Notes under the pieces: model-generated | The model's input: only the letters and a program-made list of their open reading frames with translations | Databases searched by the model: none | What the model was told of the DNA's origin: nothing | Translations under genes and position numbers: made by a program | Source of the DNA: Lachnospiraceae bacterium | GTDB taxonomy: Bacteria; Bacillota; Clostridia; Lachnospirales; Lachnospiraceae | DNA: 39,154 nt | NCBI GenBank assembly: GCA_022510605.1 | Contig: JAFLTB010000022.1 | Coordinates: 1 to 39,154, forward strand | Reading direction: 5' to 3' | Shown: piece after piece, positions 628 through 37,679 of the stretch | Layout of the letters: the number at the start of each line of letters is the position of its first letter | Position numbering within the stretch: the first letter of the stretch is position 1

Positions 628-1881
628 TTATTCCCCCGCCAAATTAAAGCATACTACTCTTGTAAGCGCTTGTATCAATTGATATCCGTCCCACAGAAAA
701 TCAAAATCCATCGTATGACCGATCGATACTACTCTATCCACTCCTTTAATTCCACTTCTGACAAGTGGTTCCAGCATTTTCGCATTCCCTAGCATACCTA
801 TTGTCTGACATTTTTTGTCATTACACAGAACTTTTAACTCCATAATATTTCTGCAATCATATTCAAAAAAGAATCCACAATTATCCATATAATTCATAAG
901 TGTGCTGTCTATTTTTTTTACTGATACCCTTATCATCAGATTATCATCATGCTCCTCTACATGAGCACCATACTTATTCATACTATCATCAACACTACTA
1001 GAAGGTTCGGATTCCATACTGGCAGATAATAGCGCACTTGTCAATTTATTTACTCCCTGTATGTCTTGAAATAAATATTTTTCTTTTACAACTTCATATA
1101 ATTTATTCCAAAATATTTCTTTTGCCTCCTCTTTCTTATCTCCCGTCCAAATAACTACTCTGGGACTCGTACACGCATTTTGATCGGAAAAATATGTATC
1201 ATTATAGAAATCGAACGCTACTCCCATCTTATCTTCTATCTCCATGTACGCATCCGAATCAATCAATGCAATTGAATACCTGTCTGCAAATGTAATCTCA
1301 GTGCTTCTTGGCGGCAATGATGATTTTCTCACTTCTTCAATAGTTCTATCACCACCCCAGATAATACGTGTGTCAGCTATCAGACTTAGTTCATCATTTA
1401 CATCTTTATTATGCTCATACCGTATTAATGCGATATAAGGCTTCATCTCTTTATATCTTTCCAATGTGACTCTGATTGCATCCGCTATAATCTCAACCTG
1501 CGGGAAATCCTTAGACGGAACACGTACTATATTCGCATTGCCTGTCAACAATCCACTTACAAGGCTATATGCAAAATTCACAGGTACATTAGACGGTGCG
1601 ATATGAAAAGCAATTCCTCTACCAAGATGAAAATTTTTATCTTCGAAAGCATATCTATCTTCAAGCTGAGCAATCGACGCCTTTCTTATCCAAAACGCGA
1701 ACGTTATGACATCTGAATGCTGTTTACTCCTTGAGTCTTTCATCAGTACCTTTGATACATCAGATAAATACTTTTTCACATCATCAGCGAATGGAACTTT
1801 TAATGGTAAATCTGGCATTGACTCAATAATATCAGCGCTTCCTACAAGATAATCTATTTTTTCTAATATTTCCCTACTCAT
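628..1881 (-). CDS. LuxC-like acyl reductase (LuxC-1)
   Basis: 417-residue member of the LuxC family, which reduces an enzyme-bound acyl group to the aldehyde with NADPH. The nucleotide-binding stretch GRGIAFHIAPSNVPVNF (about 87-103) and the active-site cysteine in DQNAC (Cys237) are intact. The start at 1881 is chosen because its ATG overlaps the LuxE-1 stop as ATGA and has GGAGAGG about six bases upstream; the longer reading from 1911 lies inside luxE. It is the last gene of the sub-operon Fe-ADH, NeuD-like, ACP, LuxE, LuxC. No LuxA, LuxB or LuxD is present, so the aldehyde is not luciferase fuel. The nearby alcohol dehydrogenase suggests it is reduced on to an alcohol (inference). A paralogue, LuxC-2, lies at 20067-21884. 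Confidence 0.9.
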   Translation of the reverse strand: MSREILEKIDYLVGSADIIESMPDLPLKVPFADDVKKYLSDVSKVLMKDSRSKQHSDVITFAFWIRKASIAQLEDRYAFEDKNFHLGRGIAFHIAPSNVPVNFAYSLVSGLLTGNANIVRVPSKDFPQVEIIADAIRVTLERYKEMKPYIALIRYEHNKDVNDELSLIADTRIIWGGDRTIEEVRKSSLPPRSTEITFADRYSIALIDSDAYMEIEDKMGVAFDFYNDTYFSDQNACTSPRVVIWTGDKKEEAKEIFWNKLYEVVKEKYLFQDIQGVNKLTSALLSASMESEPSSSVDDSMNKYGAHVEEHDDNLMIRVSVKKIDSTLMNYMDNCGFFFEYDCRNIMELKVLCNDKKCQTIGMLGNAKMLEPLVRSGIKGVDRVVSIGHTMDFDFLWDGYQLIQALTRVVCFNLAGE

Positions 1882-2969
1882 CTGAACCTCTCCGCATAAG
1901 TATCGCTGCATCCACGTATTTCTGCATCTTTCAACCGTCCTATAATCTTAAAGTACTTACCTTTACGACCACATGAACAGTCATCTATTCCTTCTATTAT
2001 CCCCTCATCCTCAGTTAATAAGCTGTGTCCAGGATACGATTCCGGGATGGTAGAAACGACTTGTATAATTCCTTTTTCCCCGACTTCACACGGTTTGAAG
2101 TCAATAGCGCGACGAGTAATCACGTCAGAGAAAATGCTTGCATGGAGATGACCACACTCGCACTCCATGTATATACAGCCAGTCTGCTCAACCATACCGT
2201 AGTAGTCATAGATTTGCTGCAAACCACAGACATCTTTAAGTCGCTTATGAAACTCATCATGGCTGACCGCTTCTGCCAACAACTTCTTCCATCCACCACC
2301 ATGGATAAGGATGCCATTGGACAAATCAAAAGTCATCCCTTCTTGTTTAAGTCTAATGAGCTCCTTATAGAAATGCTGCCATATCATGAATGTAAATCCG
2401 AAAAGAAGAATTCGTTCACGCTTGTGCCGTTCCAGAAAAGCACATAACACATCCACATCCAGTTTCATTTCATCATCTAATGCGTAAATCTTCTTAGAGC
2501 CAAAAATCGAAAATCCACGAATCCCTGCACCTCTGGCAGAAAACATCGCACGATTTTTTACCACACTTGGACAATCGATAATTATCATCGGCATTCTGGC
2601 ACTTCCTGTGAAATCAGAGACAATTTTTACCATTGTTTTCTGCTGGTTTGCAGATGTTCGCCTATCAAGGTATATTTTGCTCACCGCCTGACCTGTAGTA
2701 CCAGATGACATCATAGTCTTAATGACTTCGTCATCTGGTACTGATCTCAATTCCAACTCTTTAAACAGACTAACCGGCAAAAAAGGTAAATCCTCATATG
2801 AGTTCACTTTATTTTTATTATAATTTATAGCATTCAACATTCTTCTATATGGCAAACATCGCTCATAATGATGTTCCGTTAGTCCTATCAAACGCTTAGT
2901 CAATAATTTTTCTTTCTCCGATGCATTCAAGCTATAAGGAGATATATCAACAATTTCATCGAAAGACAT
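1878..2969 (-). CDS. LuxE-like acyl-protein synthetase (LuxE-1)
   Basis: 363-residue LuxE-family adenylate-forming enzyme. In the Lux system it activates a fatty acid with ATP, holds it on a C-terminal cysteine and passes it to LuxC. The ATP-loop SSGTTGQ sits at 88-94 and the C-terminal cysteine motif EIRGCSDTY has Cys354, matching the acyl-accepting cysteine of the family. The start has a clear GGAGG six bases upstream. It is translationally coupled to LuxC-1 (ATGA overlap) and preceded by ACP-1, so the acyl donor may be an ACP-bound chain rather than a free acid (inference). Its paralogue LuxE-2 at 18976-20061 shares the same motifs, but there the gene order with LuxC is reversed. Confidence 0.9.
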   Translation of the reverse strand: MSFDEIVDISPYSLNASEKEKLLTKRLIGLTEHHYERCLPYRRMLNAINYNKNKVNSYEDLPFLPVSLFKELELRSVPDDEVIKTMMSSGTTGQAVSKIYLDRRTSANQQKTMVKIVSDFTGSARMPMIIIDCPSVVKNRAMFSARGAGIRGFSIFGSKKIYALDDEMKLDVDVLCAFLERHKRERILLFGFTFMIWQHFYKELIRLKQEGMTFDLSNGILIHGGGWKKLLAEAVSHDEFHKRLKDVCGLQQIYDYYGMVEQTGCIYMECECGHLHASIFSDVITRRAIDFKPCEVGEKGIIQVVSTIPESYPGHSLLTEDEGIIEGIDDCSCGRKGKYFKIIGRLKDAEIRGCSDTYAERFR

Positions 2970-3023
2970 GTTTTGCCTCCAATTTTATTTTTCCATTTCA
3001 GCTATTGTGGCATTATTCATGCT

Positions 3024-3263
3024 TTAAAACTCCACCCCATAGTTAGAAGAAAGAATTTCCTTTCCCTTTTCAAATGAACTAAAATCTATGATATCTTCTG
3101 CACTCATTTCAATCTCAAATGCAGTTTCAAGAGCATCTATCAGTCCCATATGACCTACAGAATCCCATGCTTGTATGTCCTGATATTTCAAATCTTGAAG
3201 CTCCTCTTTTTTTATATCAAATGTACTGATGAAAGCATCCGCATATTTTTCATGATTATTCAT
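3024..3263 (-). CDS. Acyl carrier protein ACP-1
   Basis: 79-residue acidic protein with the phosphopantetheine site WDSVGHM, where the serine would carry the prosthetic group. The W-D-S form, instead of the D-S-L of housekeeping AcpP, is shared by most ACPs of this island and is common in polysaccharide-linked ACPs. The ATG at 3263 is preferred over a TTG six bases upstream because AGGAGG lies eight bases before it. It is closest in motif and C-terminus (GHM, then ending VEF) to ACP-2 at 16914-17153, so the two probably arose by duplication. It would hold the acyl group handled by LuxE-1 and LuxC-1. Confidence 0.88.
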   Translation of the reverse strand: MNNHEKYADAFISTFDIKKEELQDLKYQDIQAWDSVGHMGLIDALETAFEIEMSAEDIIDFSSFEKGKEILSSNYGVEF

Positions 3264-3290
3264 AATCAAGCCTCCTTTTCACTTACTTAA

Positions 3291-3959
3291 TTAAAAACTT
3301 TCAACCATAATATCCAAAAGTCTGCGTTTAGATTGCTGCACCCTGCATGCATCAGGCGCTACTATATTATTTTCACCGATAGACTTGGAAAGTACCGCTC
3401 CAGAACCAATAAGGTTATAACTCCCTATTTCCACTCTATCACCTATGATTGCCCCTATTCCAAAATCATTATTGTTAGCAACCTTTATGAAACTTCCTAA
3501 AAAAGTCTTTGGACCAACAAAATTAAAGTCTGCAATTGTCGTTTCTTGCTCAACCATTGAAAATTCACCAAATATATTTGCGTCACCAACCTCTACAAAA
3601 GGATGAAATAAAGCATTTGCCATGACAATATTTCCTCTTCCAAACTTAACTCCATTCGTCTGAGCAGAAGAGTGATAAAAGCTACCAATCTTATAGCCCA
3701 GTTCATCACATCGGTTGAATATTTTCTTTCTAATATCATTCATTTGATGATATCCACAAGTGATAAGCACCGATATATCTGTCATGTCATAAATATCATT
3801 AAGGCTGTCAAAGTCTACCACCGGAAGTCCATCAAATTCCTTTTCCTTGAGATATTCCTTTTCAACCGTATATGCGAGAATCTCATCATTTGTATCATCT
3901 TCAATATACCAGCGAATCAATCTCGAATAGACGCTTGTCCCAAAAAGAATCCTTCTCAT
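3291..3959 (-). CDS. NeuD/PglD-like hexapeptide acyltransferase with a changed active site
   Basis: 222 residues with the two-part layout of the NeuD/PglD sugar acyltransferases: an N-terminal Rossmann-like domain (about 1-85) and a left-handed beta-helix of hexapeptide repeats (about 100-210). In PglD-type enzymes a histidine in a V-x-H-D/E stretch acts as the base. Here the matching stretch reads VEQET, with Gln138 in its place, so either another residue serves or the protein is not a conventional acetyltransferase. The ATG at 3959 has AGGAGG nine bases upstream; an upstream GTG overlaps the Fe-ADH stop. It lies between Fe-ADH and ACP-1, which suggests a role in placing an acyl group on a sugar. 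Confidence 0.75.
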   Translation of the reverse strand: MRRILFGTSVYSRLIRWYIEDDTNDEILAYTVEKEYLKEKEFDGLPVVDFDSLNDIYDMTDISVLITCGYHQMNDIRKKIFNRCDELGYKIGSFYHSSAQTNGVKFGRGNIVMANALFHPFVEVGDANIFGEFSMVEQETTIADFNFVGPKTFLGSFIKVANNNDFGIGAIIGDRVEIGSYNLIGSGAVLSKSIGENNIVAPDACRVQQSKRRLLDIMVESF

Positions 3960-3973
3960 CACACCCAACCTCC

Positions 3974-5137
3974 TCACATACTCATGCGTAAAATATGCAA
4001 AACATCTTCTTTATCCAGCTTAACAAAAGCATTCGAAAGCCCGCCGTTGACAACAGCATTTCCAGCCATCTCCTCAAATAAATCTTCCGTTTCAATTCCG
4101 ACTTCTGACAAACTGGAAGGAAGGTATAAAGACTTCAAAAATCCCTCAAATGCCTCTATCCCTTTTTCTGCAGCACATCTATCATCGTTCTCTATAATAT
4201 TCCATACGTTCCTGGCAAAAGCCGAATACTGCGGGAGTGTATCATCATTCAGTGTATATTTCATCCAGTTAGGCATGAGGATTGCAAGTCCATCACCATG
4301 TGTAATGTCATAATATGCACCTAACTCATGCTCTATTCCATGACAAGGAAAGACTACTTTTCCGCGCCCCCAGCGAATCGTCCCGTTTGCAGCCTGGGTG
4401 CCAGCCCACATTATATTGGCCCGTGCCTCATAATTTTCCGGTTCTTCCATCAAAATCGATCCGTAGTGAACACAGGTTATCATAATCGCCTCGGCAATTC
4501 GATCTGACAGATACGCTCCCATAGTTTCATTAAAATACATTTCCATGGCATGTGAGAATATGTCAGCTATTCCCGCTGATGTCTGTTTTTGAGGCAATGT
4601 ATACAGATAAGTCGGATCACATATTGACACCCTGGGATAAAACGGAATAGCACCAATAGCTAATTTTCGATGAAACAAGTTGTTAGATATCACGGCGCTG
4701 CGAGCCATCTCGGACCCTGAAGCAGCCAACGTCAGAATAGTTACAATCGGCAGGCCATCTTTTATTAGTCTCTGATTTTCCATAATATCCCATGGATCAC
4801 CGTCATAACTAACTGAAACAGCTATTACTTTGGCAGCATCTATAACACTGCCACCACCACAAGCTACAATAGCGTCAATATTATTAGCACGACACAGTCT
4901 TACCCCTTCCCTTACTGATTCTATTTCAGGATTCGGTTGGATATCTGAAAGTTCTGTTATTTCATAATCTGAAAGTAATGATTTAACCTTGTCATATATG
5001 CCGATTTTCTTTATGCTCCCTCCACCATATACAAATAATAACCTTTTCCCGAGTCCCTCTATTGCAGATGGCAGGTTATCAATCTGATTCTTTCCAAAAA
5101 GCAAATTTGTAGGTATGTTCCATTGGAAATTATCCAT
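3974..5137 (-). CDS. Iron-dependent alcohol dehydrogenase (BDH/YqhD type)
   Basis: 387-residue group III alcohol dehydrogenase, a family that interconverts aldehydes and alcohols with NAD(P)H. The dinucleotide motif GGGSVIDAAK is at 94-103. The four metal ligands expected from YqhD are all present: Asp192, His196, His266 and His280. It is the first gene after the internal sigma-A promoter at 5187-5215, with GGAGAAAC just before the ATG. It shares its transcript with LuxE-1 and LuxC-1, so reduction of a LuxC-made aldehyde to an alcohol is the obvious reading (inference). The opposite direction is also possible. Confidence 0.88.
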   Translation of the reverse strand: MDNFQWNIPTNLLFGKNQIDNLPSAIEGLGKRLLFVYGGGSIKKIGIYDKVKSLLSDYEITELSDIQPNPEIESVREGVRLCRANNIDAIVACGGGSVIDAAKVIAVSVSYDGDPWDIMENQRLIKDGLPIVTILTLAASGSEMARSAVISNNLFHRKLAIGAIPFYPRVSICDPTYLYTLPQKQTSAGIADIFSHAMEMYFNETMGAYLSDRIAEAIMITCVHYGSILMEEPENYEARANIMWAGTQAANGTIRWGRGKVVFPCHGIEHELGAYYDITHGDGLAILMPNWMKYTLNDDTLPQYSAFARNVWNIIENDDRCAAEKGIEAFEGFLKSLYLPSSLSEVGIETEDLFEEMAGNAVVNGGLSNAFVKLDKEDVLHILRMSM

Positions 5138-5186
5138 TGTGTTTCTCCTGATAATAATGTTTTTCTTCTTTAATATATACGGCTAT

Positions 5187-5971: not shown

Positions 5972-6928
5972 CTATACCATAGGGCTGTCAAATTCATAGG
6001 AACGGTCATACTTTTTCCCTGTAGGATCATAGTGTTCCTCACTGCCTGCCAGCGCCCAACTAGTACACTGCTGACAGAGTTTCGGCAATTCATCAAATCT
6101 GTGCTCCATATGCAATTTTATCATCGATTGCTTTCTTTTCCACACCTCTTGAACAGATTCCTTATTTAGGTCTCCACATGCCAGTGTCGCATCACAGTCG
6201 TCACCACAGACTGTAGCTGTCCCATCCCATGTGACGCCCAACTGACCGATAGCAAGTCCACAGGCAATTCGCTCTTGATTAATATCATGCTTCACTGTCT
6301 TTAAATTTCCTGCCCAGTTCCCCAAAACTCGGACTCCTACACCCACTCCTTTGTCCAGCCAATAATCTACAATCTGTTGGACCTCGTGCTTATTCTCCTC
6401 CATCTCAATAACTTTAATTTCAAAGTAAGGTTTTTTGCCTTCACGTTTCTTCCACTTTTCCGCAAAATTTAAAAGATTGTTATACAACACATCTCGGTCA
6501 CCACCACAACGTATTTTCTCATACACTTCCTTGCTGAAACCATCTACATCCGTACTAAGAAAATCAATACCGGAATCCAAAAGCATATCTGCCATTTCAT
6601 CATCCAGAAGAATTCCATTGGTATTCAAATTCACATTAGTCAATCCCTTTTTCTTAGCATAGTCAATCATAAAGTACAATTTATATCTGGCAAGCAAAGG
6701 TTCGCCTACAAAATCCAGCCAAATTCTAGTACCCGGACTGACTTCTGCTACTTCGTCAATGATTTTGCGATACAGTTTCATGTCCATATACCCTTTTTTT
6801 CTTGTCAGACTGTCATTACAACACATAATGCAATTCAAATTACAGTAAGCTCCCACCTCCACTAGCAGATTCAATGGAAAGTCTCTTGACACAAATTTTT
6901 GTTCTTGTTCTTTTAGATTTTTGATCAT
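5972..6928 (-). CDS. Radical SAM/SPASM protein (rSAM-2)
   Basis: 318 residues with the usual order for this class. The cluster motif CNLNCIMC (Cys29, Cys33, Cys36) is near the N-terminus, a TIM-barrel region follows, and a cysteine-rich SPASM-type C-terminus (about 220-290) contains CGDDC and LCQQC for extra iron-sulfur clusters. The start has AGGAGG seven bases upstream. The substrate cannot be read from sequence. Between the sugar aminotransferase and WbqC, the likeliest role is a radical step on a nucleotide sugar or on an acyl/amino group attached to it. No peptide precursor gene is visible nearby, which argues against a RiPP function. Confidence 0.82.
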   Translation of the reverse strand: MIKNLKEQEQKFVSRDFPLNLLVEVGAYCNLNCIMCCNDSLTRKKGYMDMKLYRKIIDEVAEVSPGTRIWLDFVGEPLLARYKLYFMIDYAKKKGLTNVNLNTNGILLDDEMADMLLDSGIDFLSTDVDGFSKEVYEKIRCGGDRDVLYNNLLNFAEKWKKREGKKPYFEIKVIEMEENKHEVQQIVDYWLDKGVGVGVRVLGNWAGNLKTVKHDINQERIACGLAIGQLGVTWDGTATVCGDDCDATLACGDLNKESVQEVWKRKQSMIKLHMEHRFDELPKLCQQCTSWALAGSEEHYDPTGKKYDRSYEFDSPMV

Positions 6929-8090: not shown

Positions 8091-9794
8091 CTAATCAATA
8101 ATTGCAATCTCACCTACGTTCACTCCTATCTTTTTCCCCAGTTGAATCGCCCGATTCAGCTGCTCAACATATACCTCATGATATACATTTCTCTCATCAT
8201 CTACTTTCTCGGATATACTATATCCCATGATTTTTTGAAACCAGACCGTGTCTGCTTTGTATTTCTTAGCAAATTCAACAAAGGGCACCAGTTCACGCAC
8301 GTTTATTCTTTGAATACAGTAATTAAATCGCGTATCATATACAACTCCTTTTTCTCTGAGAGAAGCCAGCACTGCCAGGCTATCTAATAATTGCTTATAA
8401 CTGCCTCCCCTTCGAATTATAGAATATGTTTCCGTACATGCAGCATCAATGGAAATAGTCACCAGTATCCTATATTTCCGAGACAATTTTTTTATCAGTT
8501 CCTCATTTCTCCCCAATAATATTCCATTGGATTGAATAAGAATTTCTTCCAGGTTTGGCATAATAAACTCTTCTAAATGATTCAATATTTCCAAACATAC
8601 AGGACTATAAAATACTTCACCGCTTCCGTTTATCGTAAGTCTTTTTAAGTTTGTAAACTCATATTCTTTTAATTTTCTCAAAATATCCCACATTTTATCC
8701 TTTGTTTCCTGTGAAGGCCGGACATTAGTTTCACGACACATTCTGCATCGAAGATTACATTGATCATCAAAAGCAATATTCAATTCAGCAGGTCCACCTT
8801 CTATTTCCAGTGTATTCTCATCAATGATTTTGCGGTAGAATGGATCTGTTATTTCCTCCTTTTTAAGTAGTGAACCCGTCTTTATTACCGGACATCTTTC
8901 ACTATTACAAAAATAATAACTGCCATTTAAGATGGATTCTCGAACAAGTCTTGACATCGGGGAGTTCCAAAGTTCATCTATACCTTCTTTTTCCTGTATA
9001 TTTCCCACACTTAAATGATTTATGTACCAGGGGCAACACAGGTCCGCCGTGTTCAAATACAAATCCATGTGCATAAAAGGTCTCCAACAGAAATATTCTT
9101 TCATGCTCTTTTCACCAAATTCTAACTTCTCATATACATGTTTTTTGTTTTCTGTTTTAAGATAAATATAATCAGGATAAATAAAATGCGTGATAGGAAC
9201 AAAATCTATATTTGCACGAAAATCTCTTTCAATAAGCTGATTTTCTATATCCAGATGATTTTTCCCTGTAATCCAGAACACTTGATTCTCCTCAGGAGAG
9301 AATTTGTCGATTTCCTCTTCGGGAATCACCTGGATTGCGAAGTTTTTGGAAGCAGGCATTTTTTTAATTATTTCTGCAAAGGCTTTCACTTCATTTACAT
9401 TGCTATCTCCTATAATTATAATATTTCTATTCTTATAACAATTCCATAAGTCTTTCCATTCATCGTCACAGCATGAATGCGCATTGTAAATTAAATAATC
9501 TCCTTGCCCTTCTAACTGTGACTTAATTTCTTCGTAATACTGACTGGCAATCAAAACGCATATGTCACTTTCATCCATGGTATTCAGCACTTCCGGTCCC
9601 TTTATTTCATATTTGTTCAGAAAATAAAAACCCCATCGTTCTTTATTATTATCCAGACAAAACGCAATCTGATCAGTAATATCCAGAATATCCAGCCAAT
9701 GCCATAACTTCTGAGCACCTGACCCTGTCCCAAATACAACGACCTTCTTGCCTTTTGTAATTTCTTTTAATCCCACCAGATCATGTATTGTCAT
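8091..9794 (-). CDS. Radical SAM protein with SPASM-like domain before the rSAM core (rSAM-1)
   Basis: 567 residues in three parts. Residues 1-125 form a Rossmann-like domain (KKVVVFGTGSGAQKL at 16-30). Residues about 230-305 carry a SPASM-type cysteine pattern (Cys236, Cys253, Cys254, Cys296, Cys301) with the typical S-V-G-N-I and D-E-L-W-N-S-P spacing. Residues 335-567 form the radical SAM core with CNLRCRMC (Cys346, Cys350, Cys353). SPASM normally follows the core, so the order here is permuted. The start has AGGAGG nine bases upstream. The neighbours (glycosyltransferase, WecE, second rSAM) suggest a sugar-related reaction. The Rossmann-like front end resembles the one at the front of the adjacent glycosyltransferase-like protein. 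Confidence 0.78.
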   Translation of the reverse strand: MTIHDLVGLKEITKGKKVVVFGTGSGAQKLWHWLDILDITDQIAFCLDNNKERWGFYFLNKYEIKGPEVLNTMDESDICVLIASQYYEEIKSQLEGQGDYLIYNAHSCCDDEWKDLWNCYKNRNIIIIGDSNVNEVKAFAEIIKKMPASKNFAIQVIPEEEIDKFSPEENQVFWITGKNHLDIENQLIERDFRANIDFVPITHFIYPDYIYLKTENKKHVYEKLEFGEKSMKEYFCWRPFMHMDLYLNTADLCCPWYINHLSVGNIQEKEGIDELWNSPMSRLVRESILNGSYYFCNSERCPVIKTGSLLKKEEITDPFYRKIIDENTLEIEGGPAELNIAFDDQCNLRCRMCRETNVRPSQETKDKMWDILRKLKEYEFTNLKRLTINGSGEVFYSPVCLEILNHLEEFIMPNLEEILIQSNGILLGRNEELIKKLSRKYRILVTISIDAACTETYSIIRRGGSYKQLLDSLAVLASLREKGVVYDTRFNYCIQRINVRELVPFVEFAKKYKADTVWFQKIMGYSISEKVDDERNVYHEVYVEQLNRAIQLGKKIGVNVGEIAIID

Positions 9795-13172: not shown

Positions 13173-13174
13173 AA

Positions 13175-16913: not shown

Positions 16914-17153
16914 TTAAAATTCAACGTCGTGGGCTTTCAGAACCTCCAGACCTTTGTTAAAAGAATCCAGACCGATAATCTCATCTGTCTCCAGCATGAC
17001 ATCAAAAGCATCCTCCAATGAGGCTACCAGATCCATATGTCCCACACTGTCCCACTCAGGAATCTGCTTAAATTGCAGATTTTCCACATCAAAGTCCTCT
17101 GATAAAGAGAACACCTCAATAAAAACATTTTTATAGGTTTCTAAGTTTGCCAT
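16914..17153 (-). CDS. Acyl carrier protein ACP-2
   Basis: 79-residue acidic protein with the phosphopantetheine site EWDSVGHMDL. The start at 17153 (MANLETYKN) has GGAGG upstream; the longer frame to 17192 would run into the preceding SDR. It resembles ACP-1 in the WDSVGHM motif and in ending with VEF. It lies between an SDR and KASIII-A and is the probable carrier of the product of that pair. Confidence 0.88.
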   Translation of the reverse strand: MANLETYKNVFIEVFSLSEDFDVENLQFKQIPEWDSVGHMDLVASLEDAFDVMLETDEIIGLDSFNKGLEVLKAHDVEF

Positions 17154-17172
17154 ATTGACCCTCCATTTCTTT

Positions 17173-17922: not shown

Positions 17923-17944
17923 TCCGGTATCCTTCCTTTCTTCT

Positions 17945-20061: not shown

Positions 20062-20066
20062 GTTTC

Positions 20067-23604: not shown

Positions 23605-23613
23605 TTTGGTCAC

Positions 23614-27123: not shown

Positions 27124-27901
27124 TTTGAACCATTCCCCACTTCCGTATAGTATGCTTCTCCAGCTGTGCAAACAATAAGTGTTCCACAATAATACCAATA
27201 ATCATAATCACAACAAGTGCCGCAAAGGTTCCCGCTGTATCCATCTGATACCGCTTGATATAAATAAACCAGCCCAGACCGCCAACCGCTCCGGATACAC
27301 CAAAAATCATCTCGGCACTAATGAGCGCTCTCCAGGCTCTTGCCCATCCAACCTTTAGGCCGGATATAATGGAAGGAAGGGAAGCCGGTAAATAAATATC
27401 CGTGATTAATCTACCCTTTGATAATCCAATATTCCTTCCACATTCCACATATATGCTGGGCGTAGAACGGAATCCATCAATAATACTTCTGGAAATCGGC
27501 CAGAGGACAGAATGAACAATGATAAAAACTGTCGTCGCCTCTCCCGTTCCGAACCATAGTATAGCCAGGGGCAGGAGTGCCACTCCTGGCAGCGGGTCAA
27601 ATAATGTAACAACCGTGTCATATATCGCACAAAAAAACTTTGAGAGAATTGCCAGGGCAGACAGAATAAATCCGATAACAATCCCCAAAAACAATCCCAT
27701 GCCAATTAAACGGAGAGAAAAAACAATGGAAGTCAAAAGATCCTCCTGCGTCACTCCTTTTACCAGGGCATTCCAAATCTCCCCCAGAGATGGAAACAAC
27801 AATTCCGGAAATATTCCACTCCAATAGCAAATCTGCCATATGAATAGCAGCGCTATCACGATGATAAGCATTTTGCATGTTCTCTTCATACGTTTCCTCA
27901 T
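27113..27901 (-). CDS. ABC importer permease (NitT/TauT type)
   Basis: 262-residue membrane protein with about six hydrophobic segments. The cytoplasmic EAA-like loop ECGRNIGLSKGRLITDIYLP is followed by ASLPSIISGLKVGWARAWRA, the hallmark of SsuC/TauC-type permeases. It starts three bases after the lipoprotein stop and overlaps the ATPase gene. Confidence 0.9.
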   Translation of the reverse strand: MRKRMKRTCKMLIIVIALLFIWQICYWSGIFPELLFPSLGEIWNALVKGVTQEDLLTSIVFSLRLIGMGLFLGIVIGFILSALAILSKFFCAIYDTVVTLFDPLPGVALLPLAILWFGTGEATTVFIIVHSVLWPISRSIIDGFRSTPSIYVECGRNIGLSKGRLITDIYLPASLPSIISGLKVGWARAWRALISAEMIFGVSGAVGGLGWFIYIKRYQMDTAGTFAALVVIMIIGIIVEHLLFAQLEKHTIRKWGMVQNEQ

Positions 27902-27904: not shown

Positions 27905-28876
27905 CTATAATATATTATCAAAACAAATCTCGCTCAAATCCGCCGGCGCTTTTTCCATAAAGTCCGCACGCTCCATGAACTGAGCAATCTCCAATGTTCC
28001 GTGCGGCTTCATATCATAATCGGAACCCTCTGCTGATAAAAATTCTTTCATTTTATCCGCCGTCACCCCCTCTTTTTCACACAGCATTTCCGCTGCTTTA
28101 TCCTGATTATTGTTCAGCATGTCCATTGCCTCTTCCATGGCCGAAACCAAGGCCTGATACACCTGCGGTTTCTCGTCGTGAAGCTTGGTTGTCGTTGATC
28201 CTACAATAATCGTTGCATCTTCTGGAAATGCCGCCGCAACATCCTCCACTTCATGAATATTACTCTCCTCCTTCTCCTGCAGGAAATATGGGGATGTTGT
28301 CAGCTGACAGGGAACGCTTCCTGACAGCAATGCCTGCATTCCATCCGGATGGGACATAGTAACCATATTATTGTCTAAAGCATGTGGGTCCCCCAGCTCC
28401 TTTTCACAGGCCATAGCCAGCATGACGTGCTGAATGCTGCCGTAGCCCACCAGCGCAATCTTATCTCCCTCTTTAATATCCTTAATCGATTGGATGCGGT
28501 CTTCTGTGGTATTTAGCCCCATCGGCTGTGCCGAAAGCGCCGAATACATCTTGATTTCTCCGCTCTTCATTGAGTTTATCAAAAATGGACCAACCCCGGA
28601 ATGCGCTACATCAATACTTCCCGCTACCATTCCTTCATAAATTTCTGCCGGGCCATTTAATGTTTTCCACTCGACTTCAATTTCTCCGTCATAATATTTT
28701 TCAATCAATTGCTCCTGCTTCATAATCTCAAGAGGAGCATAGGCAAGGCCCCACTGATATGCCATTACCAGCTTCTCTTTTCCATTTTCGGATGAGTTCT
28801 GGCCACAGGCAGAACTTAAGCATATTACCATGCCCATCACTAAAGCCGCTGCTAAGATTTTTTTCATACTTTTCAT
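27905..28876 (-). CDS. Substrate-binding lipoprotein of the importer (SsuA/NMT1-like)
   Basis: 323 residues with a lipoprotein signal peptide (KKILAAALVMGMVICLSSAC; lipobox cysteine near residue 24) and a periplasmic-binding fold of the SsuA/TauA/NMT1 type. Typical blocks are QWGLAYAPLEIMK and GMVAGSIDVAHSGVGPF. Members bind small sulfonates, carboxylates, nitrate or thiamine precursors; the ligand cannot be read here. An importer inside a glycan/acyl cluster is unexpected. Its position directly upstream of an AMP ligase suggests an acid destined for activation. An ACP gene lies 22 bases upstream, so it is part of the same transcript. Confidence 0.88.
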   Translation of the reverse strand: MKSMKKILAAALVMGMVICLSSACGQNSSENGKEKLVMAYQWGLAYAPLEIMKQEQLIEKYYDGEIEVEWKTLNGPAEIYEGMVAGSIDVAHSGVGPFLINSMKSGEIKMYSALSAQPMGLNTTEDRIQSIKDIKEGDKIALVGYGSIQHVMLAMACEKELGDPHALDNNMVTMSHPDGMQALLSGSVPCQLTTSPYFLQEKEESNIHEVEDVAAAFPEDATIIVGSTTTKLHDEKPQVYQALVSAMEEAMDMLNNNQDKAAEMLCEKEGVTADKMKEFLSAEGSDYDMKPHGTLEIAQFMERADFMEKAPADLSEICFDNIL

Positions 28877-28898: not shown

Positions 28899-29138
28899 TT
28901 ACTTATTTTGGTGCTGCTTATTTTCGATTACCTGACAAATATCCCCGACACTTTCCATGGAAATCATCTCATCAAAGGAAAATTTCAAATCAAAGTGCTG
29001 CTCCAGTTTCTGGAATAGCACAATCTGCCCAAAAGAATCCCATTCTGGCAAACTGTCAGAAGATGTGCACTCCGTAACTTCAATATTCTCTCCCAGATTA
29101 AGCGCTTCTCTCAAAATCTCAATTACTTCGTTTAACAT
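28899..29138 (-). CDS. Acyl carrier protein ACP-5
   Basis: 79-residue acidic protein with the phosphopantetheine site PEWDSFGQIVL. It starts four bases after the GNAT-265 stop and lies just before the importer genes. Its motif differs from the WDS-L-S-K-L-S-L subgroup, so it may serve a different partner, possibly the GNAT beside it. Confidence 0.87.
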   Translation of the reverse strand: MLNEVIEILREALNLGENIEVTECTSSDSLPEWDSFGQIVLFQKLEQHFDLKFSFDEMISMESVGDICQVIENKQHQNK

Positions 29139-29973: not shown

Positions 29974-31038
29974 CTAATAATTAGAAATAATCATCTCACA
30001 AAAATCCAAGCATCCAAGATCCAAGATCATGGAACTCCATGACAATCCTGCTCCAAATCCAGCAAGACAGCACTTATACTTGCTTTTAACCATCTGCCCA
30101 CTAAAATTATGTGTAATAGCAACGGGGATTGTTGAACCACTGGTGTTACCAAAATTTTCTACTACATTCATTGGAATCTTTTCCCAGGATATCCCCAGTT
30201 TATCGGAAAGTTTCTGTAACATAAATTTATTGGGCTGATGAAATATGAACCAGTCGATATCTTCTTTTTTCATACTGGCATATTCCAGTATTTCATTAAT
30301 CAATGGTGGAACTTCTTTTTGGACAAAGTTAAATACTTTAGAGCCGTCCATCCACAAGTCATCATAACTCTTCATTGTCCCATCACCAATATCCACTGGA
30401 ACTGCTGTCTGTGGACTCCTTGGCATCTTATACCCCCCTGCGTGCATAATCAAAGCTTCTCTTTCCGTTCCATCATTATAAAAATTAATATATATATCAG
30501 ATGCTTTATCATCCCTCTCAAATATTGTTATAGCTGTTGCATCACCACCAAAAGATGCTGAAGTCAATGGTGTTTTTTTATCTTTCCGGTTGAGAACATC
30601 ACTATTGAAAACCAGCACCTTTTTATCGCCCACTACATCCAACAATAGAAATGCCTGTAATGCCCCCAACATAAATCCTGCACACCCCTGCGGAATGTCT
30701 ATACAAATTACATCTTGTGGCAGATTGCACTCACCGTGAATAATATTACTCACATGAGGAATAAAGTAATCCGGAGTCAACCCGGTAACTACAATAGCGC
30801 CAATTTCCTCTTTTTTTATATAGCCTTTATTCAGCAGATAATTGAGCCCATATACACAATAGTCGGATGCGGTAGAGTCCGCTTTTGCCGCCCTTCTTTT
30901 TCCAAAGCCCATAATTCTCTTTAGTCTCTTGGTCTGAAGGGTCGCAAAGGGTTTGGTCTCTTCATCATAGTCATACTCATTCTCCGGCATAACAGTTAGT
31001 ATTCCGGTTATTTTTTTCCCTTTTATGGTGGTAATCAT
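29974..31038 (-). CDS. 3-oxoacyl-ACP synthase III (KASIII-C)
   Basis: 354 residues with Cys119 (PQGCAGF), His267 (FHQPNKF) and Asn298 (FGNTSGSTIP). It is the most divergent of the four intact KASIIIs. Its N-terminus lacks the M-x-G-x-Y/F-x-N opening, and it has about 20 extra residues before the histidine with the acidic/aromatic stretch YDDLWMDGSKVFNF. Its start overlaps the ACP-6 stop (ATGA) and the adenylation gene lies just before, so its starter may be the unit loaded by that enzyme (inference). The differences from the other KASIIIs fit a different starter. Confidence 0.9.
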   Translation of the reverse strand: MITTIKGKKITGILTVMPENEYDYDEETKPFATLQTKRLKRIMGFGKRRAAKADSTASDYCVYGLNYLLNKGYIKKEEIGAIVVTGLTPDYFIPHVSNIIHGECNLPQDVICIDIPQGCAGFMLGALQAFLLLDVVGDKKVLVFNSDVLNRKDKKTPLTSASFGGDATAITIFERDDKASDIYINFYNDGTEREALIMHAGGYKMPRSPQTAVPVDIGDGTMKSYDDLWMDGSKVFNFVQKEVPPLINEILEYASMKKEDIDWFIFHQPNKFMLQKLSDKLGISWEKIPMNVVENFGNTSGSTIPVAITHNFSGQMVKSKYKCCLAGFGAGLSWSSMILDLGCLDFCEMIISNY

Positions 31039-31268
31039 AATGTCCCCCCATTGTTCTTAACAACATTGGCAATAGTCTCAATTGTTTCAAAATTTTCCGG
31101 GACGATATCCAGGCCATCAATTGATATATCAAAGGTGGCATCCAACTCTGACACCAAAGTAACCAGATCAAAAGAGTCTAAATATCCGTCCTCAATAAAA
31201 TTTTCGCTTGTACTAAAATCGAACTCCGGTCGGATTCCTTGCAAAATTTCCATAATTTTATTCATCAT
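31035..31268 (-). CDS. Carrier protein ACP-6 (peptidyl-carrier-like)
   Basis: 77 residues with the phosphopantetheine site DGYLDSFDLVTLV. This lacks the tryptophan seen in the other seven carriers here and looks more like carriers served by adenylation domains. It lies between the stand-alone adenylation enzyme (16 bases upstream) and KASIII-C (ATGA overlap), so the three probably form one loading-and-condensation unit. Confidence 0.86.
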   Translation of the reverse strand: MMNKIMEILQGIRPEFDFSTSENFIEDGYLDSFDLVTLVSELDATFDISIDGLDIVPENFETIETIANVVKNNGGTL

Positions 31269-32824: not shown

Positions 32825-33685
32825 CTACTGAACAGTTGTGACATTTCCATAAGAATACTCTTTTACTAATGGTTTACTATCATAAGGCTCTGCTAAAAAA
32901 CAATTCACATCCCGTGTCAGCCATTCAACCGCTTTGTCATATGCTGCCTTCTCTGTAAAGGAGGATACATAAGAATCGCCTACCGCCTGCTTTAAAAAGA
33001 CTCCCTGCTCGATTAATTCCTTTTCAAAGGATGGCGGTACACACGGTATTACATCTCTGTATTTAACATACAGAATGTGTTTATCTTCTCGGATATTGCC
33101 CTCTTTGTCAATGATATGACCCTCAAATTCTTTGTCATAACGATAAGGAACTCGTAACTTTTCCTCTACATAATGCATATGCGTGTGGCACTGTGGAAGC
33201 CGAGAACCGAAAAACAGAATCCTCGCATTTTCTATTTGATGAAACCGGTCAAAAAAACTTCCCGCTCCCAACGATTTGTTTCCACTAACCTCTGCCAATT
33301 CTTTATGGTCACCAATCACACACACAGACATCAATGGATCCTCTGACCGGATGGCATCCTCTCTTTTTCTCGCATACTCATTTATCATGCCCATTTTACA
33401 TTTTGTATTTAAGACATCATAATCCTCATGATTTCCATAACTGAAAGTAAAGGTTGGGAACACCAGGGTATTGACTTCCAACTCACAAATAGCATCAAAT
33501 AGTATTTCCACTAACTCTTTTCGTTTCAAATCCCGACTGGGGAGCCCAAAAGACAAATCCGTATGGATTAAGAGAACTTCACAGTCATCTGCCTTTACAT
33601 TACGCATAGCCTGCACCAGTTCGCCATAGGTCACCCAGGATTTATCTCTGGATTGAAACACTTTAAGACTGCTATCTCTCTTCAT
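32825..33685 (-). CDS. AAC(3)-family N-acyltransferase
   Basis: 286 residues with the blocks of the AAC(3)/YokD/FrbF family: HTDLSFGLPS (41-50), LVFPTFTFSYG, the S-E-D-P-L-M-S-V segment, SLGAGSFFDRF and the active-site THMHYVEE at 168-175. Although named for aminoglycoside acetylation, members in glycan clusters transfer acyl groups to amino-sugars. The start overlaps the preceding SDR stop by one base (TAATG). Directly after a KASIII/SDR pair and before a carrier-loading unit, it is the best candidate for putting an ACP-borne acyl group on the amine made by WecE (inference). A resistance role is unlikely in this context. Confidence 0.85.
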   Translation of the reverse strand: MKRDSSLKVFQSRDKSWVTYGELVQAMRNVKADDCEVLLIHTDLSFGLPSRDLKRKELVEILFDAICELEVNTLVFPTFTFSYGNHEDYDVLNTKCKMGMINEYARKREDAIRSEDPLMSVCVIGDHKELAEVSGNKSLGAGSFFDRFHQIENARILFFGSRLPQCHTHMHYVEEKLRVPYRYDKEFEGHIIDKEGNIREDKHILYVKYRDVIPCVPPSFEKELIEQGVFLKQAVGDSYVSSFTEKAAYDKAVEWLTRDVNCFLAEPYDSKPLVKEYSYGNVTTVQ

Positions 33686-34419
33686 TACAGTCGTCCTCCA
33701 TCTACGTAGAAATTTCTTCCTGTTACAAATTGTGATACATCACTTAGCAAATAAAGTATGGCATTTGCTACATCCTCCGGTTCTGCCAGCCCCAATGAAT
33801 CACCTTCTTTAATATTGGATTCATACATCTCCCTCGTCTCTCTCGCCATAGGGGTATCGACGGGTCCGGGAATAACTGTATTAATGCGATATTTCTTATC
33901 TATCAATTCATAAGCCAAAGATTTCACCGCCGCTTCTAATGCCCCTTTTGAAGCGGCGTAAATGCTCATGCACTTTTGGGGATTATGAGCATTTACAGCT
34001 GAAATCGCCACTATGCTCCCCCCTCTTGAATACTTTCTCTTTATAAAATATTTAATCAATTCCATAAAAGAGACAAAATTAATATCAAATGTTTCTTTTA
34101 TGAAAAATTCAGATAACATTTTGGCCGGTACCGGTTTGGCAATTCCTGCGCAATGAACCAAACCGTCTAAAAGTCCATCTTCTGCCGCTTCTGAAAACAT
34201 AGCCGGATAATTTTCAAATTCTCTGAGATCAAAAGCAATTTTTTTGTGACCTTCCCCCGATAAATGTCGCATTACATCTTCAAGTTTATCAGAATCTCGT
34301 CCAACAGCGATTACCTGCGCTCCATACTTGCTTAATTGAATTGCTGTTTCTCTTCCAATTCCGGAGGAAGCACCGGTAACTATGATTCTTTTTCCGCCCA
34401 GTTTCAGAAAATCTTCCAT
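33685..34419 (-). CDS. SDR oxidoreductase, probable 3-oxoacyl-ACP reductase
   Basis: 244-residue classical SDR with TGASSGIG (15-22), HCAG (89-92), Ser140, Y154-AAS-K158 and TGRNFYVDGGRL at the end. It is coupled on both sides by one-base TAATG overlaps, to KASIII-D upstream and the AAC(3)-type gene downstream. This makes a tight condense, reduce, transfer series that would give a 3-hydroxyacyl amide. It is the working counterpart of the degenerate SDR fused to KASIII-B. Confidence 0.9.
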   Translation of the reverse strand: MEDFLKLGGKRIIVTGASSGIGRETAIQLSKYGAQVIAVGRDSDKLEDVMRHLSGEGHKKIAFDLREFENYPAMFSEAAEDGLLDGLVHCAGIAKPVPAKMLSEFFIKETFDINFVSFMELIKYFIKRKYSRGGSIVAISAVNAHNPQKCMSIYAASKGALEAAVKSLAYELIDKKYRINTVIPGPVDTPMARETREMYESNIKEGDSLGLAEPEDVANAILYLLSDVSQFVTGRNFYVDGGRL

Positions 34420-35426: not shown

Positions 35427-35441
35427 TATGCTTCTCCACCT

Positions 35442-35660: not shown

Positions 35661-35701
35661 GTCATCTTCTCCTTGTTATTCATATTTTAATAGCTACAAT
35701 G

Positions 35702-35917: not shown

Positions 35918-35943
35918 CGCTTTTCTCCTTATACTGTTATAGT

Positions 35944-36657: not shown

Positions 36658-36686
36658 AAAATCTTTTCCGTCCTTCCTGTCTCCTG

Positions 36687-37679
36687 TCAACATGGCCGAT
36701 CCTGGTCACCATCTCCCCTGAATATGCGAATGCCATCAATCCCAGGCTCCATAAGACTAATAGAAACATTTCTCTGCTCAAAGGGATGAAAATAATTGGG
36801 GATGATATTGACATCATCCACTTTAAGTTTTATAAAGCCTGCTTTTTCATAGAGTTCTGTAGGCACCCCAAAAGAATAAATATCTATGTACTCATAATCA
36901 TTCTCTTCAATCAGACGTCGCAATGAGAAACCTATTTCTCCCAAATCATTCACATTACCATAAAAATCTATAATCTTGCAAGCCTTATTTCCATTTACTT
37001 CCTCTTCTCTGGTAATGATTACAGATTCTGTCTCTTTTCTGTCTGAATATATCTTCCAGACATCATATCTGTATACAGGATGTTCAAAATACCTTTTTCG
37101 TATATACTCATAATCCTTGGATAATACATATGATAAAAGCGTTTCCTCTGAAATAACCTGCTTCATCTCCTCTACACTATGAATCGGAGCCAGATGGCAT
37201 CCTGTATCTTTTACCTCTTTTATGACCTTCTTGTGAATATCGGCAATACAATAATCACTTTTATCTCCCAGCATATAATAATGATCCATTGTAAGAGGAG
37301 ACCTTCCTTGTAACTGATGTATCTTTATCGCTTTGTTCGTGAGCCCTGCAGAACACGCATATCTTGCATTCAAATCCCGCCATAGAAAATCATCAATATC
37401 CATTCCCAATAACGGGTTCTCACTTTTAATTGTTTTCCACATTCCGCAGGATGCATCCGGATTGTCACTTCGATTATACTTAATGACTCCTTCTATTCCA
37501 TAAATTGTCTGCGACTCTTCATCAATACCAATATACACATTCACCCCACTGTCATCTACATATTGCCACTCGAAAAACTCTCTGTCTCTGGCAAGTATAT
37601 GTCCCTTTTTCCAGTACTCATCAATAAATGCCATAATCAACGGAATATCTTCATATATTGCGCGTCGTATTGTTATCAT
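36687..37679 (-). CDS. GNAT-type acyltransferase (GNAT-337), first gene of the island
   Basis: 330 residues opening MITIRRAIYEDIPLIMAFID, with WKKGHILARDREFFEWQY, YEYIDIYSFGVPTELYEKAGF and the ending GDGDQDRPC. It is a clear paralogue of the gene at 23860-24861. The ATG at 37679 has AGGGG eight bases upstream and is preferred over 37700. It is the first gene after the sigma-28-like promoter, behind a leader of about 160 bases. Confidence 0.8.
   Translation of the reverse strand: MITIRRAIYEDIPLIMAFIDEYWKKGHILARDREFFEWQYVDDSGVNVYIGIDEESQTIYGIEGVIKYNRSDNPDASCGMWKTIKSENPLLGMDIDDFLWRDLNARYACSAGLTNKAIKIHQLQGRSPLTMDHYYMLGDKSDYCIADIHKKVIKEVKDTGCHLAPIHSVEEMKQVISEETLLSYVLSKDYEYIRKRYFEHPVYRYDVWKIYSDRKETESVIITREEEVNGNKACKIIDFYGNVNDLGEIGFSLRRLIEENDYEYIDIYSFGVPTELYEKAGFIKLKVDDVNIIPNYFHPFEQRNVSISLMEPGIDGIRIFRGDGDQDRPC

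What the first reader, a model, noticed from the sequence alone, without database searches (positions are those of the whole stretch)
628..37679. A 37-kb, one-direction island combining eight ACPs, four KASIIIs, two LuxE/LuxC pairs and amino-sugar genes
Seen: 39 minus-strand genes with tiny gaps or overlaps. They include 8 carrier proteins, 4 intact KASIIIs plus one catalytically empty one, 4 intact SDRs, 3 AMP ligases, 2 LuxE, 2 LuxC, WecE, a glycosyltransferase-like protein and two radical SAM proteins. Known: KASIII and SDR genes of much smaller flagellin islands (Pseudomonas modified viosamine) make the 3-hydroxybutanoyl group on a 4-amino sugar. Inference: this is a greatly expanded system making one or more unusual acyl, aldehyde- or alcohol-derived decorations on a 4-amino-4,6-dideoxysugar. 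I know of no described system with this combination.
Basis: partly seen in the sequence, partly recalled or inferred. Interest (0 to 1): 0.88.

Follow-up and report, generated by a model that had tools for sequence, protein, structure and literature searches.

The report
Giant flagellin-sugar acyl decoration island
A bacterium with gut and rumen relatives carries a 37-kb gene block that most likely builds several small custom acyl groups on carrier proteins, using parts resembling fatty-acid and peptide-antibiotic machinery, and attaches them to amino sugars that decorate its flagella.

Summary
In detail: 39 minus-strand genes (628-37700), 99.4% coding, largest gap 103 bp, 8 carriers, 4 intact KASIIIs plus one without catalytic residues, two LuxE/LuxC pairs. 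In the same genus, related islands adjoin flagellin and Maf (G300: FliD-FliS-FlgN-Maf-NeuC-flagellin-NeuA-deacetylase-GNATx-KAS genes on one strand). Island KASs occur in 19/39 genus genomes but 6/395 others of the family sample, and track NeuB (p=1.7e-5). Against it: the window holds no flagellin or Maf; the Lux half tracks neither KAS, NeuB nor Maf; relatives of both halves also sit in exopolysaccharide, capsule and pilus loci. The combination has precedents: LuxE-LuxC-ligase-ACP modules in Aeromonas and enterobacterial flagellin islands, tetronate genes of an O-antigen, and the KAS-SDR-ACP viosamine cassette. New, as far as the papers seen go: the scale, an adenylation-carrier-KAS-GNAT-like quartet (6 of 8 island genomes), an active/inactive KAS pair kept in a second species, and a transketolase-linked Lux module. 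No product is shown. New variant of a known kind.

The parts
628..1911 (-). g1 LuxC acyl reductase, motif DQNACTSP
   Evidence: PF05893 2.9e-30; motif read, its catalytic role recalled
1878..2969 (-). g2 LuxE acyl-protein synthetase
   Evidence: PF04443 3.1e-59; PDB LuxE 7xc6 1.2e-19
3024..3269 (-). g3 carrier protein
   Evidence: DSVGHM motif; no Pfam hit; up to 71% to carriers beside LuxE in relatives
3291..3977 (-). g4 NeuD/VioB-like hexapeptide acyltransferase
   Evidence: PF00132; TIGR03570 108 bits, below cut-off 160.8
3974..5137 (-). g5 iron-containing alcohol dehydrogenase
   Evidence: PF00465, PF25137
5241..5948 (-). g6 WbqC family
   Evidence: PF08889 3.3e-78
5972..6928 (-). g7 radical SAM/SPASM protein
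   Evidence: PF04055, PF13186
6944..8074 (-). g8 WecE, dTDP-4-amino-4,6-dideoxygalactose transaminase
   Evidence: NF008687 619.5 bits over cut-off 375
8091..9794 (-). g9 radical SAM protein
   Evidence: PF04055
9833..11812 (-). g10 glycosyltransferase (group 1 domain)
   Evidence: PF13692, PF00534
11772..13172 (-). g11 AMP ligase of the LuxE/LuxC module, no amino-acid Asp
   Evidence: PF00501; best PDB relative oxalate-CoA ligase; pocket residue T not D
13175..15118 (-). g12 full-length transketolase
   Evidence: PF00456/PF02779/PF02780; PDB transketolases, split transketolase 6yaj/6yak
15165..15875 (-). g13 KASIII-like protein lacking catalytic Cys/His/Asn
   Evidence: an Ala-for-Cys protein follows an intact KAS in G312
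15872..16894 (-). g14 intact KASIII
   Evidence: PF08541/PF08545; C-H-N
16914..17192 (-). g15 carrier protein
   Evidence: DSVGHM motif; no Pfam hit
17173..17967 (-). g16 SDR
   Evidence: PF13561
17945..18163 (-). g17 carrier protein
   Evidence: PF00550
18213..19103 (-). g18 SDR of the type that travels with transketolase
   Evidence: PF13561; co-occurrence p=2e-5
18976..20070 (-). g19 LuxE
   Evidence: PF04443
20067..21947 (-). g20 LuxC fused to GNAT acyltransferase
   Evidence: PF05893, PF13673; separate nearby genes in G242
21919..23613 (-). g21 KASIII fused to degenerate SDR
   Evidence: PF08541, PF13561
23614..23832 (-). g22 carrier protein
   Evidence: PF00550
23860..24867 (-). g23 tandem-GNAT acyltransferase family (GNATx)
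   Evidence: no Pfam/NCBIfam; 37% to g39
24903..26363 (-). g24 AMP ligase, non-amino-acid type
   Evidence: PF00501/PF13193
26353..27198 (-). g25 ABC importer ATPase
   Evidence: PF00005; 72% in G329 island
27113..27901 (-). g26 ABC importer permease
   Evidence: PF00528; 78% in G329
27905..28876 (-). g27 SsuA/NMT1-like substrate-binding protein
   Evidence: PF13379, TIGR01728 below cut-off; 76% in G329
28899..29138 (-). g28 carrier protein
   Evidence: PF00550
29143..29946 (-). g29 GNAT-like protein (fold unproven), member of the quartet
   Evidence: no family hit; AF2 pLDDT 56 only
29974..31038 (-). g30 intact KASIII of the quartet
   Evidence: PF08541; 82% in G108, G329, G333, G319
31035..31268 (-). 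g31 carrier protein of the quartet
   Evidence: PF00550
31285..32814 (-). g32 amino-acid-type adenylation enzyme of the quartet
   Evidence: PF00501; PDB linear gramicidin synthetase, GrsA, DltA; Asp235-equivalent
32825..33685 (-). g33 AAC(3)-fold N-acyltransferase
   Evidence: PF02522; far below NCBIfam AAC_3 cut-off
33685..34419 (-). g34 SDR
   Evidence: PF13561
34419..35426 (-). g35 intact KASIII
   Evidence: PF08541/PF08545
35442..35660 (-). g36 carrier protein
   Evidence: PF00550
35702..35917 (-). g37 carrier protein
   Evidence: PF00550
35944..36693 (-). g38 SDR
   Evidence: PF13561
36687..37700 (-). g39 tandem-GNAT acyltransferase (GNATx)
   Evidence: no Pfam hit; AF2 pLDDT 77.7, pTM 0.79; Foldseek best 7q3a tandem GNAT, E 9.8e-9, TM 0.50

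Best explanation
It is a very large flagellin-glycosylation island that makes several small acyl groups and hangs them on amino groups of the sugars that decorate flagellin. Carboxylic acids are activated by AMP ligases (g11, g24) and an amino acid probably by g32, and loaded on dedicated carriers; some substrate may be imported by g25-g27. KASIIIs extend carrier-bound acyl groups with malonyl units and SDRs reduce the 3-oxo group (the viosamine-island chemistry, repeated in several cassettes); the quartet g32-g31-g30-g29 would do this with an aminoacyl starter. The LuxE/LuxC pairs reduce an activated acid to an aldehyde, finished either by the Fe-alcohol dehydrogenase (tetronate-like, g1-g5) or by transketolase plus SDR (g12, g18). 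The GNATx (g23, g39), NeuD-like (g4) and AAC(3)-fold (g33) enzymes then acylate the amine of a 4-amino-4,6-dideoxysugar (WecE) and/or a nonulosonic acid, which Maf-type transferases put on flagellin. Shown: gene content, conserved catalytic motifs of the KASs and carriers, synteny beside flagellin and Maf in the genus, NeuB association, GNAT fold of g39 by prediction. Inferred: every substrate, every product, the order of steps, and the flagellin target in this host.
For: G300: one-strand order FliD-FliS-FlgN-Maf-NeuC-flagellin-NeuA-deacetylase-GNATx (58%)-AAC3 (75%)-adenylation (70%)-KAS/ACP/SDR genes (its FlgN is 60% to a host protein that matches FlgN). G329: relatives of g21-g30, g32-g35 and g38 at 50-82% identity, then deacetylase, flagellin, Maf. 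G299 and G301: flagellins on the island contig. 39 of 39 genus genomes have a Flagellin_N match; KAS island x NeuB 17/2/4/16, p=1.7e-5; x Maf 12/7/4/16, p=0.0095. Host: 4 Flagellin_N matches (the weakest, beside FliD and FliS on C71, may be hook-associated), Maf-type matches on C3 and C88, NeuB on C58, FliD-FliS-FlgN at the end of C71. Cassette precedent by mutants and mass spectrometry: vioS/vioR/acp/vioB for 3-hydroxybutyryl-viosamine (PMC3927599, passages). RfbL activates 2,4-dihydroxybutanoate and putatively loads carrier RfbK (PMC12208996, passages). Aeromonas AH-3, in a group whose islands carry ACP/SDR/ligase/LuxE/LuxC, has a 376.14-Da pseudaminic derivative, which fits one acetyl replaced by C4H6O3 (376.148), and an unknown 102-Da moiety (C4H6O3 is 102.032) (arithmetic mine).
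Against: The window itself holds no flagellin, Maf or NeuB, and the contig ends. Family-wide, strong LuxE does not track flagellin (15 of 22 versus 141 of 277, p=0.13); 7 of 22 LuxE genomes lack flagellin. In the genus the Lux marker (g20 search, 11 of 39) tracks neither KAS, NeuB nor Maf, so the two halves may be separate units. Quartet relatives lie in exopolysaccharide (G098), NulO (G188, by BLAST) and type IV pilus (G180, G129) settings. KAS x Maf weakens to p=0.051 in the 26 high-quality genomes. 7 of 19 KAS-island genomes have no Maf match above 95 bits. Genus genomes are related, so Fisher tests overstate independence.
Confidence: 0.66

Rival explanations
1. The island decorates a different surface glycan (exopolysaccharide, capsule, teichoic-like polymer or type IV pilin) in this host; chemistry as above.
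For: G098, without a flagellin match, has the quartet plus AAC3, ACC carboxyltransferase, an acyltransferase-domain (malonyl-transacylase type) protein, thioesterase, a Polysacc_synt_2 (PglF-like) dehydratase, a sugar transferase and glycosyltransferases; G180 and G129 have it beside prepilins and, in G180, PilT/PilB-type ATPases; G242 combines KAS, Lux and transketolase with NeuB and a Wzm/Wzt-like pair named by eye. g6 WbqC and g8 WecE are typical polysaccharide-cluster genes (recalled).
Against: The nearest, same-genus islands adjoin flagellin and Maf.
Confidence: 0.22
2. Two or more independent units: a KAS/ACP flagellin island (about 21.9-37.7 kb) and a LuxE/LuxC/transketolase/WecE polysaccharide unit (about 0.6-21.9 kb), merely abutting on this contig. 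(Not exclusive of the readings above.)
For: G108 and G329 hold right-half genes, and neither genome has a g20 (LuxC) match at E<=0.001; Lux x KAS p=1.0 in the genus; Lux modules with transketolase occur without KAS in many loci read, e.g. G317/L206.
Against: G312 has Lux, KAS, carriers, adenylation enzyme, NeuA-like and NeuB genes in one same-strand run of about 33 kb, including an intact/Cys-less KAS pair as here; the window has no gap larger than 103 bp.
Confidence: 0.35
3. It makes a secreted small molecule (hybrid lipopeptide/aminoglycoside-like natural product) rather than a surface decoration.
For: Carrier, KAS, adenylation and aminotransferase genes resemble natural-product clusters; AAC(3)-fold gene.
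Against: No exporter, condensation domain or regulator family was hit in the island; relatives embedded in flagellin, NulO and polysaccharide loci.
Confidence: 0.05

Closest known systems
Pseudomonas syringae viosamine island (vioA, vioM, vioT, vioS, vioB, vioR, acp) for 3-hydroxybutyryl-viosamine on flagellin (PMC3927599, passages read)
   Same: KASIII + SDR + ACP + acyltransferase + sugar aminotransferase, flagellin target, 4-amino-4,6-dideoxysugar
   Different: One cassette versus several here; no adenylation enzyme, LuxE/LuxC, transketolase or importer among its seven ORFs
Vibrio cholerae O1 tetronate genes rfbK-O (PMC12208996 and PMC3441752, passages; Morona 1995 cited there, not read; functions of rfbM, N, O recalled)
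   Same: Carrier, AMP ligase, and by recall Fe-ADH, LuxE-LuxC fusion and NeuD-type gene, for an N-acyl group on a 4-amino-4,6-dideoxysugar
   Different: O-antigen, perosamine; no KAS recalled there; sequence orthology to the window genes was not tested; g5 is only 28% over 230 aa to the Fe-ADH of the G098 module
Aeromonas group II and Enterobacteriaceae flagellin glycosylation islands with ACP, FabG-type reductase, AMP ligase, LuxE, LuxC (PMC7874193, PMC4875605, passages)
   Same: LuxE/LuxC module inside flagellin islands
   Different: No KASIII or adenylation enzyme in the passages seen; the word transketolase occurs in neither text; function there only proposed as a liposugar
KASIII pair PqsC/PqsB (recalled; PqsC is a PDB match of g30)
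   Same: Intact KASIII next to one lacking catalytic residues
   Different: No evidence here that g14 and g13 bind each other
DltA-DltC and NRPS adenylation-carrier pairs
   Same: Amino-acid-type adenylation enzyme plus carrier
   Different: Stand-alone, paired with KASIII and a GNAT-like protein, no condensation domain

Membership tests
Maf/NulO-type flagellin glycosylation island | adjacent to flagellin/Maf/flagellar late genes | tested here: inconclusive
   Not on this contig, which ends; met in related same-genus islands G300, G329
Maf/NulO-type flagellin glycosylation island | host encodes flagellin, Maf and NulO synthase | tested here: met
Maf/NulO-type flagellin glycosylation island | flagellin carries the glycan | not testable with these tools
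   needs mass spectrometry
Viosamine-type acyl cassette | intact KASIII, SDR, carrier, sugar aminotransferase, acyltransferase together | tested here: met
Viosamine-type acyl cassette | 3-hydroxybutyryl product on 4-amino sugar | not testable with these tools
   no product data
Tetronate (RfbK-O) pathway | carrier, AMP ligase, Fe-ADH, LuxE, LuxC, NeuD-type acyltransferase together | tested here: met
   g1-g5 and g11 by family (NeuD model below its cut-off); the ligase lies over 6 kb from g5. The feature list is partly recalled
Tetronate (RfbK-O) pathway | orthology to RfbK-O by sequence | not tested
   V. cholerae was not among the 80 loci kept
LuxE/LuxC/transketolase module (type II) | ligase, carrier, SDR, transketolase with LuxE/LuxC, no Fe-ADH | tested here: inconclusive
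   Ligase in 74 of 78 and transketolase in 31 of 78 typed loci; Fe-ADH and transketolase together in 1 of 78; the window has both, in different halves
Bacterial bioluminescence (lux) operon | luciferase LuxA/LuxB | tested here: not met
   no such family among the 39 genes
Modular NRPS/PKS | multidomain modules with condensation or cis-KS and thioesterase | tested here: not met
   domains are on separate small proteins apart from the two fusions g20 and g21; no condensation or thioesterase family in the window
Aminoglycoside AAC(3) resistance enzyme | NCBIfam AAC_3 cut-off | tested here: not met
   g33 35.1 bits against 270

The most novel reading that the evidence does not exclude
A dissociated hybrid peptide-polyketide assembly line for protein glycans: an amino acid loaded by g32 on carrier g31 is extended by KASIII g30 and reduced to a 4-amino-3-hydroxyacyl (statine-like) group, capped by g29 and moved to a flagellin sugar by tandem-GNAT or AAC(3)-fold transferases, while an active/inactive KASIII pair (g14/g13) and a LuxC-aldehyde plus transketolase step build further branched or polyhydroxy groups. 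Each species of this genus that has an island would carry its own shuffled set, giving species-specific flagellar chemistry.
Probability: 0.35. Interest if true: 0.85.

Novelty: new variant of a known kind. Interest (0 to 1): 0.66.

Why it matters
Flagellins of gut bacteria are important antigens (recalled), and chemistry on their sugars could change recognition and motility. If right, the island holds a richer acyl-building kit than any flagellin island in the papers I saw, links amino-acid adenylation and KASIII extension to protein glycans, points to a tandem-GNAT family that matched no Pfam or NCBIfam model as its transferase, and offers an explanation for orphan masses (102 and 376 Da) on Aeromonas flagellin.

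Tried and rejected
Considered and rejected: a luciferase operon (no LuxA/B); AAC(3) drug resistance for g33. Long lipid chains as the main role seem unlikely: no FabF-type synthase or dehydratase family was hit and g11's best solved relative is oxalate-CoA ligase; but the SDRs match adh_short_C2, whose name is enoyl-ACP reductase, so an enoyl reductase is not excluded. A clear sigma-28 promoter: pattern scans gave no enrichment (6 matches against 3.9 expected, 6 against 2.9). Sigma-70-like matches: 8 against 3.7 in 37600-39154, both strands, 53 against 56.1 in 1-20000; 20001-37599 was not scanned; nothing is built on these. Structure of g29: pLDDT 56, inconclusive, not searched further. One search covered a wrong Pfam accession (LNT_N instead of Maf) and says nothing. 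Paper searches (10 of 10 used): no listed title or abstract start describes a flagellin island with adenylation enzyme, KASIII and LuxE/LuxC; three papers hold both 'transketolase' and 'flagellin glycosylation', none opened; the library holds open-licence papers only. PMC6927306 was opened for LuxE, but the match was the word Luxembourg. Rows dropped: two of 80 named loci had no LuxE ORF in my ORF choice (L125, L142) and were left out, which counts same-strand genes within 6 kb of LuxE. Labels such as NeuA/NeuB/NeuC, PSdeac and Wzm/Wzt in relatives are best BLAST matches to G242 proteins named by eye; Pfam checks were made only for NeuB in G242, NeuA, NeuC and deacetylase in G300 and the deacetylase on C88. 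KAS, ACP and adenylation labels in relatives are best BLAST matches to window, G098 or G242 proteins. Gene calls in relatives come from a simple longest-ORF script, so starts and some small carriers may be wrong (carrier g31 was not called in G329). The genome sets and table counts behind the Fisher tests were typed by hand.

Full report
OBSERVATION. The window is the complete contig C39 (39,154 bp) of a 2.72-Mb, 123-contig genome. It holds 39 minus-strand genes from 628 to 37700 with 99.4% coding sequence, 15 overlapping junctions of 38 and no gap over 103 bp. Three AMP-forming enzymes differ: g32 is NRPS/DltA-like and keeps the Asp that binds an alpha-amino group, g24 and g11 do not (the mapping to PheA was done by motif with recalled positions). 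The family is probably Lachnospiraceae: the same-family genome G098 matches L078, titled uncultured Lachnospiraceae, at 100% in all 17 labelled genes. Where this genome was sampled is not known to me.

SYNTENY. In the family sample, KASs of the island type (E<=1e-80) occur in 8 of 397 genomes: this one, its congener G108, and 6 of the other 395. In the window's genus they occur in 19 of 39. G108 has many right-half genes in nearly the same order: KAS30 82%, carrier 81%, adenylation 80%, AAC3 86%, KAS35 60%, KAS-SDR 36%. G329 has g24-g28 relatives including the importer (72-78%), KAS30 82%, AAC3 81%, KAS-SDR 62%, GNATx 72%. G333 and G319 each carry two runs of KAS genes. G312 combines LuxE, LuxC, g11-type ligase (72%), KASs, carriers, an adenylation enzyme, NeuA-like and NeuB genes in one same-strand run of about 33 kb.

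WHAT IT DECORATES. In G300 one strand reads FliD, FliS, FlgN-like, Maf, NeuC, flagellin, NeuA, polysaccharide deacetylase, GNATx, AAC3, adenylation enzyme and the KAS/SDR/carrier genes. G329 ends in deacetylase, flagellin and Maf; G299 has the island, flagellins, Maf and flagellar genes on one contig; G301 has three flagellins about 8-9 kb away. All 39 genus genomes have a Flagellin_N match, 29 of 39 some MptE-like match and 21 of 39 NeuB. Counting only MptE-like matches above 95 bits as Maf (16 genomes), KAS islands track Maf (12/7/4/16, p=0.0095; 26 high-quality genomes only, p=0.051) and NeuB (17/2/4/16, p=1.7e-5; high-quality p=1.7e-4). Against a purely flagellar role: the quartet's other relatives lie in an exopolysaccharide locus of a genome without a flagellin match (G098), a NulO-type locus (G188, by BLAST) and beside type IV pilus genes (G180, G129), and strong LuxE does not track flagellin across the family (15 of 22 against 141 of 277, p=0.13). 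In the genus the Lux marker tracks neither KAS (p=1.0), NeuB (0.72) nor Maf (0.73).

THE LUX MODULES. Of 78 typed loci, 74 have an AMP ligase near LuxE; 17 have Fe-ADH, 31 transketolase, one both (p=0.0014; not corrected for kinship, and within the window-like LuxE type only 1 of 40 has Fe-ADH, p=1); transketolase travels with a g18-type SDR (p=2e-5); 31 have neither. So there may be two finishing routes for a LuxC aldehyde. The Fe-ADH form, in the order carrier-ligase-FeADH-LuxE/LuxC, resembles the tetronate genes of V. [quoted passage not shown] the Fe-ADH and LuxE/LuxC nature of RfbM and RfbN is recalled. LuxE/LuxC/ligase/ACP/SDR modules were noted in Aeromonas group II and enterobacterial flagellin islands and read as a possible liposugar component. 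In A. piscicola AH-3 the linking sugar is 376.14 Da and an unknown moiety 102 Da; replacing one acetyl of Pse5Ac7Ac by C4H6O3 gives 376.148 and C4H6O3 is 102.032, which fits a dihydroxybutyryl group (an O-methylglyceroyl group has the same formula). This is my arithmetic and a hypothesis. The transketolase would instead transfer a two-carbon ketol to the aldehyde; the one search for it with flagellin glycosylation listed three papers on other subjects, not opened.

THE KAS CASSETTES. KASIII+SDR+ACP+acyltransferase is the viosamine-island set for 3-hydroxybutyryl-viosamine, worked out with mutants and mass spectrometry (PMC3927599, passages). Here it is repeated. A quartet of adenylation enzyme, carrier, KAS and GNAT-like protein is present in one locus in 6 of the 8 island genomes (window, G108, G188, G180, G129, G098; not G242 or G017), though the GNAT-like member is only 19-29% alike. 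The adenylation pocket is nearly the same in 9 of 15 rows, from several genera (DIFFWALLDK or DIYFWALLDK), with two other codes in 3 rows each, suggesting fixed, different substrates; I could not assign them. G098 adds an ACC carboxyltransferase, an acyltransferase-domain (malonyl-transacylase type) protein and a thioesterase, which fits malonyl extension. The g14/g13 pair recurs in G312, where a 251-aa protein with Ala for Cys follows an intact KAS. Of 86 KAS sequences compared there (5 of them the window's), 79 align with C-H-N; besides g13 and the G312 protein, two keep Cys but not His and Asn (G318, G332) and three are fragments (L097, L137 twice).

THE TRANSFERASE. GNATx proteins match no Pfam (g23, g39) or NCBIfam (g23 only tested) model. 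The g39 model (pLDDT 77.7, pTM 0.79) matches a tandem-repeat GNAT, VipF, Eis and N-myristoyltransferases at TM 0.4-0.5. Relatives sit near LuxE/LuxC with NeuA/B/C-like and deacetylase-like genes in V. fortis (L105), Vibrio sp. 99-8-1 (L109) and Carboxylicivirga (L095), which suggests deacetylate-then-reacylate; inference.

VERDICT. A new, oversized variant of flagellin-type acyl-sugar islands, made of known cassettes plus an adenylation-KAS quartet and a transketolase-linked Lux module that I did not find described in the papers seen. The target is probably flagellin (about 0.66), and very likely a surface amino sugar in any case. Products are unknown.

Noticed in passing
G000 C84:13207-13614 (L036) and G333, G319, G312, G325, G334: Flagellin N-terminal domain in a very long open frame (1643 aa in the host, 1645 aa in five sister genomes, 1650-1708 in three more): apparently giant flagellins conserved in the genus.
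   Followed up: no
L173/L174 (G180) and L177/L178 (G129): The adenylation-carrier-KAS-GNAT-like quartet lies beside type IV pilus genes, hinting at acylated pilus glycans.
   Followed up: partly
window 38070-39152 and L198:15809-16102: g40 resembles Rpn/PD-(D/E)XK-type multi-copy genes (name by eye); a 97-aa copy (59%) lies at a contig end of C88, so such repeats may cause the contig breaks.
   Followed up: partly
L120: A Pacearchaeota MAG carries LuxE, LuxC, carrier, ligase, Fe-ADH and DegT-like genes together, by BLAST.
   Followed up: no
L081, L153: Treponema parvum and T. bryantii carry LuxE/LuxC/ligase/carrier modules near NulO-like or aminotransferase-like genes.
   Followed up: no
L203:2940-5191: G312 island has a FabA-like dehydratase and an acetolactate-synthase-like TPP enzyme next to the KAS pair, where the window has transketolase.
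   Followed up: partly
L206 = L150: A same-genus genome (G317) is identical on this contig to record ONNE01000040.1, uncultured Clostridiales RUG441.
   Followed up: yes
window 1-627: No convincing gene in the first 627 bases; the contig ends just past LuxC g1.
   Followed up: no
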